Shown here: one piece after another, positions 2,883 to 52,232 of the stretch
Layout: the number at the start of each line of letters is the position of its first letter
Position numbering within the stretch: the stretch's first letter is position 1
Assembly (NCBI GenBank): GCA_026414605.1
Contig: JAOAIP010000015.1
Location: forward strand, 1-64,000
Length of the DNA stretch: 64,000 bases
Direction of reading: 5' to 3'
DNA from: Bacteroidia bacterium
Lineage (GTDB): Bacteria > Bacteroidota > Bacteroidia > B-17B0 > Aurantibacillaceae
Made by a program: the position numbers and the translations under genes
The notes under the pieces: generated by a model
Told to the model about the DNA's origin: nothing
Databases searched by the model: none
The model's input: only the letters and a program-made list of their open reading frames with translations

Positions 2883-5800
2883 TTATCTAATTAAAGTTAC
2901 ATTTCCTTTCTTAAAAATTTCTTTTCCATTAGGACATTTGGCTTTCAGATAATACCCAAAAACGCCCACATCAGCAGGACGTCCTTTGTAGTTTCCGTCC
3001 CATCCTTTGTTTTTATCCGTTGTTTCAAACACTAATTCGCCCCATCTATTATACACTGCAAAATACAACTCGTTAATCAAATAACCTCTTACATACAATA
3101 CATCATTATTTCCATCTCCATTAGGTGTAAATGTATTGGGCACAAAGACATCACTTTCTTTGCATTGATCATCAATAACCACCACCAATACTGTGGCTGT
3201 TTTATTACATATTCCATCGCTTACAATGACGGTATATGTTGTATTTTGAGAAGGTGCAGATGTAACTGTATATTGATTGTTAGGAATGACTAAATTAGAA
3301 GGATACCAATTCACAACATTTCCTGATGGTGCTAATAGAACCAACTGTGTAGTTTGCCCTTTTAAGATAGTATCTGGAAGTGCCATAGCTTGAATAGTAG
3401 AACTTGATAATGCAGATACATTCACATTCGTAAATAAAGTATAAACACACGTATCTCCATTGGTATTCAAAGCAAAAATGTCAACTGTATAAGTAGTTGA
3501 GACCGTTGGCGTGGCGACAGGACTTGATATGGTGTAACTATTCAAACTATTTGCAGGCGACCAAACATAAGCAAATCCCCCACTGGCATTAAGAGTATAT
3601 GAGTTTCCTAAACAAATAGTAGTATTGCTACTTACACTCACAGGAAGTGCTTGACCTACGCTAATTACTTTTTGAATACTATCTTTACATCCATAAGCAT
3701 TTTCAACTACTAAATTCACACTATAATTACCACCCGTTGAATAAAAAACTAAAGGATTTGCTTGTGAAGAAACTTGTCCATCCCCAAATTGCCAATGAAA
3801 CTGCGTAACATCAGCACTTGACAAATTTGTAAAATTAACATTTCCACCACAAGGGTTAGTGGAATAAGAAAAATTGGCTGTTGGTTTAGGATGAACGATG
3901 ATGGCTGTAGTTAATGTTTTAGAACAATGCGGATTATATGTAGTATCTGTAATTGTTACAGAATAAATTGTAGATACTGTCGGAGTGGCAATAGGATTAC
4001 TAGAATTTGGATTAGACAAAGAAACTGTAGGAACCCATTGGTATAAATTACCACCACTTGCAAAAAGAGATATACTCTCCCCCATACATATCGTATCTTT
4101 AGGAGACACTAATGGCGAGAAGGATTGTAAATTAAAAGATTGCACAACACTATCTTTGCATCCAAAATTATTTTTTACCACCAATACAGCAGTATAAGTA
4201 CCACTTGTTGTGTTTGTAAAAACAGGATTCGTTAAATTACTCGTATAAGTAGTTGGTAAAAAATACCATTGAAGAGATTGTAAACTGGCAGTTGTTGAAT
4301 AATTAGCATTAAAAAAAGCACTATCACTGCACGAAGCAGTATAAGAAATAGAAGCGGTGATAGGTGGATGAACTTGTACAATAAATGCTGTACTATCTTT
4401 TATTGGACAAAAAATAGAATCTTTGATAACAAGTGTAACAGTATAAGTACCAGGATTAGTATATGTGGCAATAGGATTCATAGATGTAGAAGTAACAACA
4501 CCATTTCCTAAATTCCATTGGTATTGAAAAGTATTAACACAACTATTAAAAAACTGCACAGTTAAAGGAGCACAACCAGTAGTATTAGTGCTCGTAGCCA
4601 TAGGATTTTGAAAATCTATTTTAAAAACACCGTTGTTACAATTAAAAGAATGATTAGGATCTCCAGGAGTATTTGGCCAAGCACCAGGTGTAACAGGAAA
4701 GTCATCTTTACCACCGCACCCCGCACATACCGATTGATAGATATTACCACATTTATCAAAACGAGAAGTACCACCATCTACGTGTTCGTGGCTTATAGGT
4801 CCACCAAAATAAGATCCAAAGGTTAAAGCAGATAAATTCGGATTAAATGACATTAAATAGAAATTGTAACCATCTGTACTTGCTTGTATTGGAGCGGCCA
4901 AGGGCATACCTCCAGTGGCTTGCAAAAAAATGATATTACCCCCCCATCCCGATAAATAAACATTTCCACAACCATCAATAGAAAAAGCAGATGGAGAAAT
5001 ATCCGTTCTCGTTAATGAACTACCAAAAACAGTACTTAAAAGTATATTCGTCAATTGTTGGTCTAAAACCGAAATAAATTGATGTCGTCCTGGATTATTA
5101 TACACGGATCCAATAATAGGCATATTCCCCAATGATTGTCCATACAGATAAATTCTATTGAAAGGATCTCGTCTTACAAAATAGGACTGATCATAATTAT
5201 TTGTACCAATATAAGTACTTCTTAACAAAGACCCTGAAAACGGATCTATTTTTACGACAAAACCATCGGCTTTTCCACCATTATAGGTAGAAGAATATGC
5301 CCCTGTTGTTATTGGGAAATCATTGCTTGTAGTGCCACCAGTTGCATAAACAAAAAGTGAATCTGTTACTTCCAATGAATTTCCACAATCATTATTAGAA
5401 CCCCCAATGAAAGTACTGTAAATTAAGTTACTTAAATTTGTATTAAACACACATAATATGGCATCTTGCTTTCCACCCAGAGTGTTATCAAATGCATTAG
5501 CAGTGGTCGGAAAATCAGGAGATCTTGTAGAACTGAAAATATACACATTATTGTTTTTATCTAACTGTATTTCTCCACGATACTGATCGCCATAATTAAA
5601 CATTAAAGAATCGGGGGGATATTCGGTTACTGTGCCATATCCCGAAGTGTAAGTAGTAATTACATTCGTGTGATTGACACCATCATTTAACGAACCTCCA
5701 ATATAGGTTGAACCTAATAATGTACTGAGCGTGTTATTTAATTTTGCAATATAGATATCTGTTCCATTAACAAAACTGGTTCCATTAAAAACAAAAGTCA

Positions 5801-7817: not shown

Positions 7818-7870
7818 AATTAAAAATTTTGAATAATTGTTTTTGCTTTATTAATCGGTGTTTTACCTAG

Positions 7871-8200
7871 GCAGATTCAATCACCAAGTGCATTTTTTTA
7901 TTAGGCATAAAGTTAGCGAAAAAAACTCGTTGGGTGTATTAAATATAAGAGTTTTTCGTGGTCGATTATTCAATAAAGAAATGGCAGAAGGATGTACTTT
8001 TAATTCTTGTGCAATTTCTTTTTGTGTCTTATTACAAAATAATAGAGTGTGAATTTTAATTCTGTCACCTTTGCTTAATTGTTGATATTTGCACCCCATA
8101 GAGGTAATAATTTACCAAACCAAACAAAGGACAAGGGTAAGGTGAGTTTTCTCTCCTGTCTCCTTTATTTGAAAAATGTTTTTTAAAAAATTAGAAAGTT
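7871..8200 (-). mobile_element. Internally deleted IS30-like element, copy A
   Basis: A repeat of about 330 bases that ends at the left with AGATTCAATCACCAAGTGCA, the inverted-repeat terminus. The opposite terminus has lost about 14 bases relative to copies B and C. It contains a 72-codon ORF in which an IS30 helix-turn-helix segment is joined directly to the transposase C-terminal segment. Homologous copies lie at 8906-9248, 9792-10135, 10714-10794 and 50476-50822. No catalytic DDE region remains, so it could move only if a full-length transposase acts in trans. Confidence 0.8.
7881..8099 (-). pseudogene. IS30 transposase remnant, N- and C-terminus fused
   Basis: A 72-residue ORF. Residues 1-41 (MGCKYQQLSKGDRIKI through KTQKEIAQELKVHPSAIS) match the helix-turn-helix N-terminus of IS30 transposases, and the next residues, LLNNRPRKTLIFNTPNEFF, match the extreme C-terminus of the same family. 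The DDE catalytic core of roughly 230 residues is missing. In the other copies one base is lost at the junction, so the second half is read in another frame. It might still make a DNA-binding peptide, but I see no sign that it is used. Confidence 0.75.
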
Positions 8201-8306
8201 CACGGCGTTTTGGTTGTCTATGTCGTTGGTAAAGGTTGCTGCACTCACTACATCATTTACATACTCTAACCTGTTATTCCCCGCATAATAATTATACTTC
8301 AAGTTG
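8196..8306 (-). pseudogene. Rhs core fragment, unit A
   Basis: Read on the minus strand, these bases encode LKYNYYAGNNRLEYVNDVV followed by SAATFTNDIDNQNAVNF. This is the RHS/YD-repeat core signature (YY..GNNRL..V.D...........DI..Q). It is cut off where the deleted IS30 element begins. The box CAAATATA at 8307-8314 (TATATTTG on the minus strand) lies just before it and could be a promoter by chance or by design. No complete rhs gene is in the window. Confidence 0.7.
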
Positions 8307-8360
8307 CAAATATAAAATTTTACTATTCTATCTAGTATGTTTTATCTTATTTTACCAATA

Positions 8361-8396
8361 ACAATCAGGATGTTGTTCGTCATGTCCATACTTTCT
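8361..8396 (-). pseudogene. Orphan copy of the C-terminal tail of the next gene
   Basis: The minus strand reads SRKYGHDEQHPDCYW then stop, nearly identical to SRRYGYDEQHPDCYD, the last residues of the gene at 8426-8872, which lies about 40 bases away. No upstream part of a second gene is present, so this is a leftover of a related gene or a short tandem duplication. Confidence 0.7.
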
Positions 8397-8425
8397 AGAT
8401 GGCAATGTATTGTTTGAGTCGCAAC

Positions 8426-8872
8426 TCAATCATAACAATCAGGATGCTGTTCGTCATATCCATACCTTCTGCTTACAAGTTGCCCCTTAACTATCCACAT
8501 CTTGTAATTACAAATGAAGTATTTTTCAATACTGTCTTTATCATAATTATATTTGATATAAATTGCATAATTCTTATCTACTAAAATCATTCTCTCAACT
8601 ATTTTTAATTTTCCTTTATAATAATCAACTCTCCCAATATAATTATTAGTATCTATTTTACCTACGCTACAAATATAAATATTTATACTATCCTTATTTA
8701 TCTTACTTAAACTATCAAGCCCACAATGATCAAATTCTATATCGTATCTTTTAGTAACTTCACTCTTCATTTCTCGTCGTTCGTTATTTTTATTAATTTT
8801 TGATATGAACCATAAATTTAAAACTGCAACTACAATATTTACTCCTAATAAAATTTTATTACTTTTATTCAT
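8426..8872 (-). CDS. Unknown small membrane-anchored protein (cassette B)
   Basis: A 148-residue protein with one N-terminal hydrophobic segment (about residues 7-24) and then a polar, lysine- and tyrosine-rich domain with several cysteines. I recognise no family. It lies just after the right end of deleted IS30 copy B and before Rhs fragment A in the reading direction, so its position fits an orphan immunity gene of an Rhs toxin system; this is inference from context alone. A duplicate of its last 15 residues lies just downstream. Base composition is as AT-rich as its neighbours. Confidence 0.6.
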   Translation of the reverse strand: MNKSNKILLGVNIVVAVLNLWFISKINKNNERREMKSEVTKRYDIEFDHCGLDSLSKINKDSINIYICSVGKIDTNNYIGRVDYYKGKLKIVERMILVDKNYAIYIKYNYDKDSIEKYFICNYKMWIVKGQLVSRRYGYDEQHPDCYD

Positions 8873-8905
8873 AAGCGATTTACTTTTTGTCTATATATTG
8901 TGGGG

Positions 8906-9248
8906 CAGATTCAATCACCAAGTGCATTTTTTTATTGGGTATAAAATTAGCGAAAAAAACTCGTTGGGTGTATTAAATATAAGAGTTTTTTGTGGTCGGT
9001 TGTCAATAAAGAAACAGCAGAAGGATATACTTTTAATTCTTGTGCAATTTCTTTTTGTGTCTTATTACAAAATAATAGAGTGTGAATTTTAATTCTGTCA
9101 CCTTTGCTTAATTGTTGATATTTGCATCCCATAGGGGTAATAATTTACCAAACCAAACAAAGGACAAGGGTAAGGTGAGTTTTCTCTCCTGTCTCCTTTA
9201 TTTGAAAAATGTTTTTTAAAAAATTACACTTCTTTAGTTGAAAGTTCA
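8906..9248 (-). mobile_element. Internally deleted IS30-like element, copy B
   Basis: About 343 bases with both ends present. The left end reads CAGATTCAATCACCAAGTGC, and the right end, read inwards, is the imperfect match AACTTTCAACTAAAGAAGTG. An ORF at 8947-9132 encodes the IS30 helix-turn-helix segment; it loses frame at the deletion junction and ends after KLLYLIHPTSFFR. The element sits between the small gene at 8426-8872 and an Rhs fragment. Confidence 0.8.
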
Positions 9249-9395
9249 CGGTGTTTGGGGTGTCTATGTCGTTGGTAAAGGTTGCTGCACTCACGAAATC
9301 ATTTACATACTCCAACCTGTTATTCCCTGCATAATAATTATACTTTAAACTATCCGTCACGCTTGCCTCGGCGTATCTTAATAAATTGAGTAAAA
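9243..9395 (-). pseudogene. Rhs core fragment, unit B
   Basis: The minus strand encodes LRYAEASVTDSLKYNYYAGN then NRLEYVNDFVSAATFTNDID, the longest Rhs core piece in the window. The reading frame runs into the deleted IS30 element (TVNFQLKKCNF...), giving a 71-codon ORF at 9145-9360. An in-frame stop lies just upstream of the fragment. It is the best preserved sign that this array derives from an Rhs locus. Confidence 0.75.
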
Positions 9396-9416
9396 TTTAT
9401 TTTTGGAAAATAAAAA

Positions 9417-9779
9417 TCATTCATTTGATTTTGAATTAAATATTTTGTTTGAAATATTAAACTTCCTTAAAACCAAATAAATAAAACTCACAATGATAAA
9501 ACAAAATAACCAAATGATTACAAACCATATAAATGATACCGATAATAGCCAAAAAACAAATTCTGGAGGTACAGGTTCATTTGTATCAACTATCATTTCA
9601 AAACCATACAAAAATCCTAATGGCAATAAAAGGAATTCTCCTATTTCATTCATCTTAATCAACCCTAATAATACTAATGCAAACCTTTCATGTGAAATAA
9701 TCATTATAAGAATTAGTAAATATATAACAACAACTCCTAAACTTAAAAATAATAATCTTTTTTTAATATTTTGGGCCAT
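9417..9779 (-). CDS. Unknown small polytopic membrane protein (cassette C)
   Basis: A 120-residue protein with three or four hydrophobic segments: about residues 10-28, a weaker pair around 33-62, and 78-104 (FVFWLLSVSFIWFVIIW...). A positively charged tail follows. No family is recognised. The ATG at 9779 lies about 13 bases after the end of deleted IS30 copy C, and the gene ends about 20 bases before Rhs fragment B, so the cassette is compact. A membrane immunity protein is possible from context; nothing in the sequence proves it. Confidence 0.55.
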   Translation of the reverse strand: MAQNIKKRLLFLSLGVVVIYLLILIMIISHERFALVLLGLIKMNEIGEFLLLPLGFLYGFEMIVDTNEPVPPEFVFWLLSVSFIWFVIIWLFCFIIVSFIYLVLRKFNISNKIFNSKSNE

Positions 9780-9791
9780 ATTTCGAAAATG

Positions 9792-10135
9792 ACAGATTCA
9801 ATCACCAAGTGCAATTTTTTATTAGGCATAAAATTAGCGAAAAAAACTCGTTGGGGGTATTAAATTTAAAGGTTTTTCATGGTCAGTTGTCAATAAAAAA
9901 ATGGCAGAAGGATGTACTTTTAATTCTTGTGCAATTTCTTTTTGTGTCTTATTACAAAATAATAGAGTGTGAATTTTAATTCTGTCACCTTTGCTTAATT
10001 GTTGATATTTGCATCCCATAGGGGTAATAATTTACCAAACCAAAAAAGGACAAGGGTAAGGTGAGTTTTCTCTCCTGTCTCCTTTATTTGAAAAATGTTT
10101 TTTTAAAAAATTACACTTCTTTAGTTGAAAGTTCA
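9792..10135 (-). mobile_element. Internally deleted IS30-like element, copy C
   Basis: About 344 bases, both termini present, closely similar to copies A, B and E. The helix-turn-helix ORF lies at 9834-10019. The distal terminus reads TATGAACTTTCAACTAAAG on the minus strand and is shared with copy E at 50 kb, which suggests that the outer end of the element includes these bases. Confidence 0.8.
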
Positions 10136-10200
10136 TAGTGTTTTGGTTGTCTATGTCGTTGGTGAAGGTTGTCAATTCACTACATCATTCAAGTTTTCTC
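10136..10200 (-). pseudogene. Rhs core fragment, unit C, degraded
   Basis: The minus strand retains NDVV and then, in a shifted frame, the codons for TNDIDNQN seen in the other two units. About ten bases are missing between the two parts, which breaks the frame. The fragment lies between the lipoprotein gene at 10227 and deleted IS30 copy C. Confidence 0.6.
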
Positions 10201-10226
10201 ATCTTTAATTTTCAATATTATTTAGA

Positions 10227-10694
10227 TTATTCCAAACTAAATGGCTTTTCTCTTATGAGTGAGCATTTCGAAAGTTTAATATATGTCTTCTCATTAAACA
10301 AATCCATTTTATTCAAACCATTCTCAAAATAAAATCTCACTTGAAAGGTATCTTTAAGTATTTCATCATTAGTATAAAACTTAATAAAAAATGTATTCTC
10401 TTTTTGAATTAATATCCATCCTGTATTTCCATGATTTCTCCTCTGCTTTTTTACTAATTTCCAATCTATTTCACCTGTTTCCTTATTTCTAAAAATTCTT
10501 ATTGGCAACCCACATCTATTTTCATCAATAAAATCTATTCCATTATTCAAGTATTCTGTAAACACATCTTGATTTTTGTAATAAATTACTTCAATTAACC
10601 ATTCCGTTCCACTTTCTAAATGCCTATAAACCTTTTGCTTTTTTGAACAAGAATAAGCAAATATAATAATCATTATTAAAAGCCAAACTCTCAT
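10227..10694 (-). CDS. Unknown lipoprotein (cassette D)
   Basis: A 155-residue protein from the ATG at 10694; the frame is open further upstream but that part is the end of the deleted IS30 copy D. The N-terminus MRVWLLIMIIIFAYSCSKKQ is a lipoprotein signal with the cysteine in YSC. The rest is polar, with many aromatic residues, and matches no family I know. The 17 or so bases before the start and the first three codons are nearly identical to those of the gene at 50839, after which the two genes diverge completely. In context it could be an immunity lipoprotein; that is not shown. Confidence 0.6.
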   Translation of the reverse strand: MRVWLLIMIIIFAYSCSKKQKVYRHLESGTEWLIEVIYYKNQDVFTEYLNNGIDFIDENRCGLPIRIFRNKETGEIDWKLVKKQRRNHGNTGWILIQKENTFFIKFYTNDEILKDTFQVRFYFENGLNKMDLFNEKTYIKLSKCSLIREKPFSLE

Positions 10695-10713
10695 TTTTCC
10701 ACTTTTTTTATAG

Positions 10714-10794
10714 ACAGATTCAATCACCAAGTGCAATTTTTTATTAGGCATAAAATTAGCGAAAAAAACTCGTTAGGTGTATTAAATTTAAGAG
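10714..10794 (-). mobile_element. Truncated IS30-like element, copy D
   Basis: Only the terminal 80 bases of the element remain, from CAGATTCAATCACCAAGTGC to the segment encoding the transposase C-terminus. The match stops at 10794, where the dispersed palindromic repeat begins at 10795 without a gap. The helix-turn-helix half is absent. Confidence 0.75.
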
Positions 10795-17489: not shown

Positions 17490-19274
17490 TTATCTTTTCT
17501 TTAATTCTTCATTTTCCTTCTTTAACTTCTCTACCTCTTGTTTCAATTTTTCTATTTCCTTATACAATTCAATAATATCCATTGTATTATCTTCTGTGTT
17601 GGCTAAAATGCCTTTCATTACTTGCGAAGTATACATACCTTTTTCTTTTACTTCCTTTTCTGCGGGTATTTCTGGTAAATGTTGATGTTCTGAAATATAC
17701 TTCTCTTTTTCTATCCAACTCATTCGTTTGAAATTCTTGTCTAATCGGTCATCGCACCAACCCGTCATTTCTACCACTACCTCTTTGGCTTTGATATGAC
17801 CATTTACTGCTAAGCGTACATTTGGATCATAACAAGTAAAACCAGTGCCTACACCAATGCCAATTTTTCCATTCACCAACAAATTTCCTCCGCTTGCATT
17901 TCCTAATACCACATCTTTTCCACTCGTATAATTTATCAACAAAGATTGACTTGTTTCCATTCTATGATTACTCCCATCATAAGAAAGTTCTATGTATTCA
18001 TTATTCCATCCAAACTTACCTGCTTTTGCACGAATATTCCCATTTACATCCACTTTTTCAGTAGGTGTATTGGTACCCACTCCTAACTTTCCATATACAT
18101 AAACATCATTATTGGTAATCAAATTTCCTCCTGCTGTTGGACTACCCACAGCAATGTCCTTTCCACAATAATAATTGATCAATAATCCACCATTTCCTCT
18201 ACTCTCTATTAAACTATTTGCCCCATCTGTAATTAACTCTAATGAAGTATTATTGTAATACAATTGCACCCATCCTCCCGGATGAAACACCGGCGATGGT
18301 AACACAGCCGGATTGAAACACGGATTAATCGGTGGCGGGGGATTGCCTACTCTGCCCACTATTACATAATCGGGCGTTGTTCCACTTCCACTAATGTATT
18401 TCATTCCATTTATATTGTCAAACAACAATCCCTGTGTCGCCGTCAAAAGTCCATTAAACTTTGCATTCCCCTGTATGGTCAGTTTATTTTCTAATTTTAC
18501 ATCTCCTTTCACTACTGTGTTACCATAAATGGCTCTGGTGCTGTCCATCATTATGCTATCGGCTCTCATCTTACTAAGTGTGGCTTCTGTCGCTAATACT
18601 TTACTTGTATTTACTTCTGTAATAGCATTTACTTTATCACTAATCACTATACCTCCACCTACATAGATATTATTACTCACTCTCACATCTCCAAAAACAT
18701 CCAACGCAAACAAGGGATTGCTTGTGCCTATACCCACATACCCATAATTGTAAAAGATATTTTGCCCACTGCTTTGCCAAAAAGAAGAAGGAAGTAAATT
18801 TGAAATGCTTGTCCAATTGCCATTTCCTGTGAGCACCTCCTGATTATTCCCTGAAAAATTAAAACGTAGGATATTGCCTTGAGCATCGGTACTTAGTAAT
18901 GCAGTTCCATTCCCTGAAAGTTGAGATACTTTTAAACTACTGCATTGTAACAAACTATCAAAGTAAGCAGCAAAGCGAAACTTACTTTGTCCATTGACAT
19001 CCAACAAATACTGTGGATTTGCAGTGCCAATGCCGATTTTACCATTGGCATCAATGCGAAAGCGTTCTACATTGTTGGTTTTGATGATGAGGGGAGAAGG
19101 ATTAGAAGTACCGAGAAAATCGGATGAATTAGGTGTATTACCATTGGTACGCCACCATTGTTGAGATTGGGCTAAAGCATTACTGACGCTGAAGACAATA
19201 GTGATAAAAGCCGCATTTATCAATGTTTTGCGGGGGGGGGGGGAAAATTTAAACAAAGGAGAAATTGTTTTCAT
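17490..19274 (-). CDS. Secreted fibre-like protein with coiled-coil tail; C12 tract at start
   Basis: About 594 residues from the ATG at 19274. The open frame reaches 19295, but a -7 box lies at 19293-19300, so the shorter start is preferred. A signal sequence runs to NALAQ. The body has several tail-fibre-like repeats of the form GKIGIGT.NP...LDVNG (near residues 80, 190, 400 and 480). The end has the conserved block GWCDDRLDKNF, HQHLPEIP, then a 35-residue heptad-type coiled coil. Proteins of this build are frequent in Bacteroidota and probably trimerise at the surface. A run of twelve C bases (19232-19243) encodes SPPPR early in the signal peptide, so slippage would shift the frame near residue 11. 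It heads a likely four-gene operon. Confidence 0.8.
   Translation of the reverse strand: MKTISPLFKFSPPPRKTLINAAFITIVFSVSNALAQSQQWWRTNGNTPNSSDFLGTSNPSPLIIKTNNVERFRIDANGKIGIGTANPQYLLDVNGQSKFRFAAYFDSLLQCSSLKVSQLSGNGTALLSTDAQGNILRFNFSGNNQEVLTGNGNWTSISNLLPSSFWQSSGQNIFYNYGYVGIGTSNPLFALDVFGDVRVSNNIYVGGGIVISDKVNAITEVNTSKVLATEATLSKMRADSIMMDSTRAIYGNTVVKGDVKLENKLTIQGNAKFNGLLTATQGLLFDNINGMKYISGSGTTPDYVIVGRVGNPPPPINPCFNPAVLPSPVFHPGGWVQLYYNNTSLELITDGANSLIESRGNGGLLINYYCGKDIAVGSPTAGGNLITNNDVYVYGKLGVGTNTPTEKVDVNGNIRAKAGKFGWNNEYIELSYDGSNHRMETSQSLLINYTSGKDVVLGNASGGNLLVNGKIGIGVGTGFTCYDPNVRLAVNGHIKAKEVVVEMTGWCDDRLDKNFKRMSWIEKEKYISEHQHLPEIPAEKEVKEKGMYTSQVMKGILANTEDNTMDIIELYKEIEKLKQEVEKLKKENEELKKR
19232..19243 (-). 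repeat. Homopolymeric C12 tract inside a signal-peptide region
   Basis: Twelve G on the plus strand, twelve C in the coding sense, about 31 bases after the ATG at 19274. It is an exceptionally long G/C run for such an AT-rich region. In its present length the frame is open. Confidence 0.9.
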
Positions 19275-50475: not shown

Positions 50476-50822
50476 ATGAACTTTCAACTAAGAAGTGTAA
50501 TTTTTTAAAAAAACATTTTTCAAACAAAGGAGGCAGGAGAGAAAACTCACCTTACCCTTGTCCTCTGTTTGGTTTTGTAAACTATTACTCATCTGGGATG
50601 CAAATATCAACAATTAAGCAAAGATGACAGAATTAAAATTCACACTCTATTATTTTGTAATAAGACACAAAAAGAAATTGCACAAGAATTAAAAGTACAT
50701 CCTTCTGCTGTTTCTTTATTGACAACCGACCACGAAAAACTCTTATATTTAATACCCCAATGAGTTTTTTTCACTAACTTTATGCCTAATAAAAAAATTG
50801 CGATTGGTGGTTGAATCTGTCT
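50476..50822 (+). mobile_element. Internally deleted IS30-like element, copy E
   Basis: About 347 bases, plus-strand orientation, 40 kb from the other four copies. It starts TATGAACTTTCAACTAAGAAG and ends GGTTGAATCTGTC. The IS30 helix-turn-helix part reads GCAAATATCAACAATTAAGC onwards; it carries an early change at the start codon (CTGGGATGC instead of CTATGGGATGC) and the same junction frameshift as copies B and C. No Rhs fragment precedes it. A lipoprotein gene starts 17 bases after its end. Confidence 0.8.
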
Positions 50823-50838: not shown

Positions 50839-51362
50839 ATGAGAGTTTTCCTTAATTTTTCTGAATATTCTTTACTAAAAATTTTACTATTAAAAGTATT
50901 ACTAGTATGTTTTTCCTTTTGCACAGAGAATAATTCACAAAATTCAATAGAACCAAATTCAAGAGACAGTATTAAAGAAAGAAAGAAAGAAAGAATTTTA
51001 TCGATGAAAAAGTATTATTTTTTGATTACACAAAAAAACTTTTTGGGGAAATTCCCGCTAATAATAGAATAAATGTTATATTATGCGAGCAATTTAACGA
51101 TACTTTGAAGATAATGTTAGATACAATGCTTATTGCAGAAGGTTATTTTAAAACCAATGAGTCCACTAGTACTGTTATAGATCAAGATATTATAATTCCC
51201 AGAGATATTGCTAAAAATAAAAAATTATTGTTTTTAAACAATAAAAATGAGATATTATGTGTTATAGAATTAAGGAAAGTAAAAAATCAATATCTCTATA
51301 TATCGAAATTAGGTAAATTTTGGAGATATGAATCTTATGAAGAACCATTGCCAATTGAATAA
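50839..51362 (+). pseudogene. Lipoprotein gene split at an (AAAG)5 repeat (cassette E)
   Basis: The first frame encodes a lipoprotein-like N-terminus (MRVFLNFSEYSLLKILLLKV, then LLVCFSFC with the putative lipid cysteine) and runs to a stop at 51070-51072. The rest of a protein (KLFGEIPANNRINVILCE, through FWRYESYEEPLPIE) continues in another frame, open from just inside the (AAAG)5 repeat at 50974-50993. With six or three AAAG units the two parts would join to one protein of about 175 or 171 residues. No family is recognised. Start region and leader match those of the lipoprotein at 10227-10694. It may be a phase-variable gene in the off state or simply a broken gene. Confidence 0.65.
50974..50993 (+). 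repeat. Tetranucleotide repeat (AAAG)5
   Basis: Five tandem AAAG units lie inside the split lipoprotein gene, exactly where the reading frame changes. One added unit, or two lost, would restore a single frame. Confidence 0.9.
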
Positions 51363-51548
51363 AAGCAAAAATTTTCAAAGTGTATATAATTTTATTTTTT
51401 TTGAAAATGTAATATGTTTATCATAAGTGTGAGTATGTGTTTGGTAAGAAAAATTATAAATTGAGTGATTGGTTGGGGAATGTGCGGATTATAGCCGATG
51501 AAACTGGGGACATAAATGTGTAGTTTTGTTTTTTTCTCCAAAACCCAA

Positions 51549-52232
51549 TTACTCTTTTTTCTCATATTTGTATCTATAATAACATTCTAATACTCTTTGA
51601 TACAAATCATAGCCATCGTGTGAAAGGATATAATAATCACTTAAATAAAAATTACAAAATTTGCGAAGTGCTTCTAAATCAACATTAGCATCGCCTGTGA
51701 GTTGATATAATATCTGAGGATTGAGTTTTTTTTGAACTTGTTCTTGTATAAAAATGTCTTCAAAAATTTTTGAGAGTTTTTGAATTTCTCTACCTTTTTT
51801 GCTAAATTGCATATACAAAGCAGTGATGGGACTGGATACAACATCAATAACAGGTATTTGTGATTTTTCAATAACTCTTTTCATATAATCTTTTTCATAG
51901 TTTTCATATTTAAGTACAGTAACATTTACAGGTTTTAGAGTATAGATGTTTTTTTTCATAATAATTTTATATCTCAAAGAAGGTAAAAGAGATACAGGAA
52001 TATATTTTTTTATAAATCCAGTATAGGAAAAAAGCAGCGTGTCGTTGGTGTTTGCTTTTACAACAAAATGTCCATTGACATCGCTTACAGTTCCAAAATT
52101 AGTATTTTTATTAATAACATAAACAAAGGGCATTATTTTAGTAGTGTCTTCTTCAAATACCCATCCTTCTATGGTGTTTTGAGCCATTCCATAAAATTGC
52201 AAAACAATAAGTATTACTAAATATCTTGTCAT
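51549..52232 (-). CDS. CarboxypepD_reg-like domain protein
   Basis: A 227-residue secreted protein with a signal peptide (MTRYLVILIVLQFYGMA-QNT). Residues about 20-95 form a carboxypeptidase-regulatory-like Ig domain: IEGWVFEEDTTKIMPFVYV, FGTVSDVNGHFVVKA, LLFSYTGF. This is the plug-preceding domain of TonB-dependent receptors, but here no receptor barrel follows. The C-terminal 110 residues are charged and helical, with the pattern often seen in this group (PITALYMQFSKKGREIQKL). Role unknown; it is a single gene with its own promoter box. Confidence 0.8.
   Translation of the reverse strand: MTRYLVILIVLQFYGMAQNTIEGWVFEEDTTKIMPFVYVINKNTNFGTVSDVNGHFVVKANTNDTLLFSYTGFIKKYIPVSLLPSLRYKIIMKKNIYTLKPVNVTVLKYENYEKDYMKRVIEKSQIPVIDVVSSPITALYMQFSKKGREIQKLSKIFEDIFIQEQVQKKLNPQILYQLTGDANVDLEALRKFCNFYLSDYYILSHDGYDLYQRVLECYYRYKYEKKE

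What the first reader, a model, noticed from the sequence alone, without database searches (positions are those of the whole stretch)
50839..51362. Lipoprotein gene apparently switched by a tetranucleotide repeat
The frame changes exactly inside (AAAG)5. Upstream the frame encodes a lipoprotein signal; downstream a plausible 120-residue domain is open in another frame from within the repeat. Six units (or three) would join both into one protein. Tetranucleotide repeats in coding regions are classic phase-variation switches in Haemophilus and Neisseria, and are seldom discussed in Bacteroidota. It follows a deleted IS30 element, as do the cassettes near 8-10 kb, so a possible immunity-like or surface protein would be phase-variable.
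Basis: partly seen in the sequence, partly recalled or inferred. Interest (0 to 1): 0.66.

Follow-up and report, generated by a model that had tools for sequence, protein, structure and literature searches.

The report
Repeat-broken orphan immunity-like gene in Rhs debris
In an uncultured Bacteroidota genome, a small secreted-protein gene that looks like a leftover 'antidote' from a toxin locus is split at a run of AAAG repeats, so copying slips there could switch it on or off, though nothing available here shows that it actually switches.

Summary
(AAAG)5.5 at 50974-50995 lies where the reading frame changes by -1. It is the only tetranucleotide array of five or more units in 2.42 of the 2.48 Mb of this assembly (about 0.01 expected per 1.2 Mb). 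A coding model puts the frame change after 50974, most probably at the repeat. The gene follows an IS30-family deletion remnant and is followed on the same strand by an Rhs core remnant (51419-51523). Four other IS30-remnant / small orphan gene / Rhs-fragment units have the same order, so the best reading is an orphan Rhs immunity-like gene, now out of frame. The five-unit tract just meets a published phase-variation cut-off, but no homologue, strain or read set was available to show another tract length. Switching is mechanistically plausible and unproven; one-off decay is the main rival. The 'lipoprotein' label is weak: no canonical lipobox. In passing, a much stronger phase-variable family turned up: poly-C tracts at the 5' end of three secreted-type paralogues here (one in frame, two out) and of five homologues in a sister species.

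The parts
50477..50822 (+). IS30-family deletion remnant (both terminal inverted repeats, internal part missing)
   Evidence: 92-93% identical to copies at 7861-8193, 8906-9248, 9791-10137 (-); 15-17 matching places in own genome, none in 3 same-genus genomes; ends TTCAACtaagAAGTGcAATTTTTT and its inverse
50596..50763 (+). N-terminal helix-turn-helix piece of the IS30-type transposase, 55 codons then TGA, start codon lost
   Evidence: sequence; the sister copy 7902-8099 (-) matches HTH_38 above its cut-off
50839..51072 (+). Upstream ORF (77 aa): hydrophobic N-terminus, then polar linker running into the repeat; stops 25 codons after it
   Evidence: start supported by the 5' flank shared with the intact gene 10230-10694 (-); coding model frame 1 best; no canonical lipobox
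50974..50995 (+). (AAAG)5.5 tetranucleotide repeat, probable site of the frame change
50976..51362 (+). Downstream frame: 128 open codons, about 120-residue domain, no start of its own before 51105
   Evidence: frame 0 strongly coding after 51033; no homologue
51033..51039 (+). A_AAA_AAC heptamer in the upstream frame (rival: programmed -1 frameshift site)
   Evidence: downstream RNA structure unexceptional, z -1.35
51419..51523 (+). Rhs core remnant YHKCEYVFGKKNYKLSDWLGNVRIIADETGDINV*
   Evidence: 64-68% identical over 22 residues to the two Rhs cores of contig C53, which match Rhs_assc_core just below its cut-off
7861..10794 (-). Sister units: IS30 remnant / small orphan gene / Rhs-type fragment, repeated (orphan genes 10230-10694, 9420-9779, 8429-8872)

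Best explanation
This is an orphan immunity-like gene left in the debris of an Rhs polymorphic-toxin locus and bounded upstream by an IS30 remnant. It once encoded (or in sister cells encodes) one protein with an N-terminal membrane or secretion signal, a basic KERKKE linker built by the AAAG repeat, and a roughly 120-residue exported domain. In the sequenced state five units put the domain out of frame, so translation stops 25 codons after the repeat (OFF). Replication slippage at the repeat is the most likely cause of the break and could reverse it, which makes the gene a candidate contingency locus. Shown: the repeat, the frame break, coding signal in both halves, the IS30 and Rhs context. 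Inferred: the immunity role, slippage as the cause, reversibility.
For: Only >=5-unit tetranucleotide array in 2.42 Mb and it coincides with the frame change. The downstream 128 codons are open and coding-like. Order IS30 remnant / small gene / Rhs fragment is shared with three units at 8-10 kb and with contig C13, whose fragment passes the YD-repeat cut-off. On contig C53 Rhs C-terminal regions are each followed by a putative lipoprotein gene, as expected of immunity genes. The same lineage carries clear slippage-type tracts in another family. Tetranucleotide tracts of >=5 units are counted as phase-variable in Neisseria (PMC5953494).
Against: No second tract length, read data or homologue. 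Five units is the minimum of the published cut-off, so the switching rate should be low. The tract is not repeated in the sister orphan genes. The immunity role rests on position alone; no immunity family matched.
Confidence: 0.5

Rival explanations
1. Simple decay: an orphan gene in a dying Rhs locus lost a repeat unit (or suffered another indel) once and is a young pseudogene. The repeat is a mutation hot spot, not a selected switch.
For: The surroundings are debris: a deleted IS30 element with a mutated start, a 34-residue Rhs remnant, no toxin partner. Only five units; no homologue that keeps a tract.
Against: No second lesion in 128 downstream codons, which still look coding; the break coincides with the only such array in the genome.
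Confidence: 0.38
2. Programmed -1 ribosomal frameshifting: ribosomes slip at A_AAA_AAC (51033-51039) and make a low level of the joined protein from the sequence as it stands; the repeat is incidental.
For: The heptamer is in the right frame and gives the right shift; the in-frame motif occurs in 32 codons by chance with probability about 0.017 (four A-rich variants together about 0.1).
Against: The frame-0 signal already matches at least as well before the heptamer; P(break at 51031-51042) 0.14. Downstream RNA structure is ordinary, 22 of 200 shuffles fold as well.
Confidence: 0.06
3. Consensus or assembly error: the gene is intact in the organism and the five-unit state is an artefact.
For: The window is part of a 76-contig draft assembly and reads could not be seen.
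Against: A 22-nt array is shorter than any standard read, so a four-base consensus error is unlikely (general knowledge).
Confidence: 0.06

Closest known systems
Tetranucleotide-repeat contingency loci of Haemophilus influenzae and Neisseria (PMC2651432, PMC5953494)
   Same: Perfect tetranucleotide array inside a coding region, near the 5' end of a gene for an exported protein, at the point where the frame changes
   Different: Only five units; a single locus in the genome; no length variation known; the gene is immunity-like rather than a surface-structure or methyltransferase gene; Bacteroidota
Orphan immunity genes of Rhs loci, e.g. Serratia marcescens Db10 (PMC10539506)
   Same: Small gene without its toxin next to Rhs sequence on the same strand
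   Different: Here the Rhs part is a short remnant, the partner toxin is unknown, and the gene is out of frame
Heterogeneous polyimmunity loci and rAID arrays of Bacteroidota (PMC3482391, PMC12247911)
   Same: Several unrelated small genes in the same orientation without toxins, in Bacteroidota
   Different: Units are separated by IS30 remnants and Rhs fragments, no recombinase association was seen, and no known immunity family matched

Membership tests
SSR-mediated translational phase variation | Perfect short-unit array in or before a coding region, longer than chance and above a mutability cut-off | tested here: met
   22 nt, five full units; expectation about 0.01 per 1.2 Mb; cut-off >=5 for tetranucleotides
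SSR-mediated translational phase variation | Unit number decides whether the two halves share a frame | tested here: met
   Frames 1 and 0 meet at the array; unit length not a multiple of three
SSR-mediated translational phase variation | Variation in unit number within a population or between strains | not testable with these tools
   No reads; no homologous locus in 87 family genomes, species-representative contigs or viral contigs
Rhs-associated orphan immunity gene | Small gene adjacent to Rhs core or C-terminal sequence, same strand, without its toxin | tested here: met
   Rhs core remnant 51419-51523 downstream; same order in four other units
Rhs-associated orphan immunity gene | Homology to a known immunity protein or neutralisation of a cognate toxin | tested here: inconclusive
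   No family match; neutralisation is a bench test
Bacterial lipoprotein | Lipobox with a small residue before the cysteine | tested here: not met
   ..LLVCFSFC, F or V at -1; the sister gene 10230-10694 does have AYSC
IS30-family element | Terminal inverted repeats and an IS30-type transposase | tested here: inconclusive
   TIRs and an N-terminal HTH_38 piece present; catalytic part deleted and no intact copy found among the matches in the assembly, so the family assignment rests on the HTH and the ends

The most novel reading that the evidence does not exclude
An orphan Rhs immunity protein in Bacteroidota is switched on and off by tetranucleotide slippage, so that only part of a clonal population carries protection against one toxin: phase-variable immunity in interbacterial competition.
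Probability: 0.2. Interest if true: 0.65.

Novelty: new member of a known kind. Interest (0 to 1): 0.42.

Why it matters
If reads show mixed tract lengths, this would be a tetranucleotide contingency gene in Bacteroidota, where such loci are little described (my searches of the held papers found none), and one acting on an immunity-like gene rather than a surface antigen. If not, it is still a clear example of an IS30-bounded graveyard of orphan genes from an Rhs locus.

Tried and rejected
Homologues of the 128-aa domain: none in the 87-genome family/order set, species-representative contigs, IMG/VR, plasmids, phages, PHROGs, NCBIfam or PADLOC; a 37% hit in G085 at E 0.003 lies inside a 459-aa frame and is taken as chance. 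Pfam PND (E 0.005, below cut-off) and PDB 2hiy (E 0.15) rejected as chance. AlphaFold2 without an alignment gave pLDDT 42, so no fold search was run. Synteny: the CarboxypepD_reg-like neighbour (51549-52232) and alaS have homologues in sister genomes but were not seen side by side in the loci fetched, so there was no counterpart locus to compare. The same AAAG 20-mer among 20 relatives occurs only in G044, intergenic before a uvrB-like gene, unrelated. Programmed frameshifting kept as a minor rival.

Full report
What is there. The window is contig C35 of a 2.48-Mb, 76-contig genome with 32% GC in the window. Relatives that carry the neighbouring gene are MAGs titled Bacteroidia or Bacteroidetes bacterium. 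The array AAAG x5.5 lies at 50974-50995. ORF 50839-51072 runs through it. A second frame, shifted by -1, is open from 50976 to the stop at 51360 and has no start codon before 51105.

Is it more than chance? I read 2.416 of 2.485 Mb of the genome in stretches. Only two tetranucleotide arrays of >=16 nt exist: this one and an (AAAG)4 inside an S12 gene. A composition model expects 0.011 arrays of >=20 nt per 1.2 Mb. A 3-periodic model trained on 970 long ORFs gives the upstream part to frame 1 (log-odds -4 against -25 and -33). It gives everything after 51073 to frame 0 (+13 against -77 and -88). The 37 nt after the repeat fit both frames and the next 40 nt fit only frame 0. The break therefore most likely lies between 50974 and about 51040, with the repeat the single most probable place even on a flat prior.

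Context. Upstream is a 346-bp IS30-family remnant: both inverted ends and the N-terminal HTH of the transposase (HTH_38 in a sister copy) but no catalytic part. It is 92-93% identical to three copies at 7.9-10.1 kb. A right-end copy at 10.7 kb shares, in addition, about 28 nt reaching into the start of an intact lipoprotein-type gene (10230-10694), which supports 50839 as the true start. Downstream, on the same strand, 51419-51523 encodes a 34-residue Rhs core remnant. It resembles the cores on contig C53, where two Rhs C-terminal regions, the first with a CHAP domain, are each followed by a putative lipoprotein gene. The three small genes at 8-10 kb are each followed by a piece of Rhs-type sequence and flanked by IS30 remnants. 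Contig C13 repeats the order, with a YD repeat above its cut-off. I therefore read the gene as an orphan immunity-like gene in Rhs debris. No sequence homologue was found to confirm this.

Mechanism. The simplest account is gain or loss of repeat units by slippage, leaving the gene OFF in the assembled sequence. Five units just meet the cut-off used for Neisseria phasomes (PMC5953494), and in H. influenzae tetranucleotide tracts above three units are already unexpected (PMC2651432). Mutability rises with unit number (PMC5953494), so this tract should be slow. Whether it is a maintained switch or a one-off loss cannot be decided without reads or sister alleles. A -1 frameshift heptamer, A_AAA_AAC at 51033-51039, is a minor rival. 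The hydrophobic N-terminus lacks a canonical lipobox, so 'lipoprotein' is not established.

Side result. The repeat survey exposed a stronger case. Three paralogous proteins of about 560-600 residues with signal-peptide-like starts carry a poly-C tract a few codons after their ATG: window 19232-19243 (C12, in frame), contig C30 4219-4228 (C10, out of frame) and contig C45 1110-1121 (C12, out of frame). In the sister genome G043 all five TTTNC9 sites fall at the expected start of homologues of this family, four of them on one contig. Conservation of the tract across species, and mixed frames within one genome, are what a selected contingency family should show. It suggests that this lineage uses slippage switches, and it makes the AAAG case somewhat more credible without proving it.

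Noticed in passing
window 17493-19274 (-), tract 19232-19243; L111 2447-4255 (tract 4219-4228); L123 1090-2778 (tract 1110-1121): Three secreted-type paralogues with poly-C tracts of 12, 10 and 12 just after the start codon, one in frame and two out of frame; a sister genome (G043) has five such tracts, all at the expected starts of homologues. A strong candidate phase-variable family in Bacteroidota.
   Followed up: partly
window 7861-10794; L068 443-1527; L067, L070, L077, L080, L083, L066, L079, L176: IS30-type ends lie within about 100 bp of the start of a small membrane or signal-peptide gene in most copies, on either side of the element; a promoter or recombination role of the ends was not tested.
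   Followed up: partly
L065 (contig C53, 5018 bp): Two truncated Rhs cores, each with its own C-terminal region (the first with a CHAP domain) followed by a putative lipoprotein gene: a tandem Rhs toxin/immunity array cut by the contig ends.
   Followed up: partly
L104 4324-4339: (AAAG)4 inside an S12 ribosomal protein gene, in frame; the only other tetranucleotide array of >=16 nt found.
   Followed up: no
L079, L084, L095, L103, L121, L144 and others: Sixteen arrays with 7-nt units, most of them variants of AAAGTTG/AAAGTGG, are scattered through the genome; position relative to genes and function were not examined.
   Followed up: no
L209 2992-3009: An 18-nt poly-T run, far longer than any other A/T run in the genome (next longest 11); not examined.
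   Followed up: no
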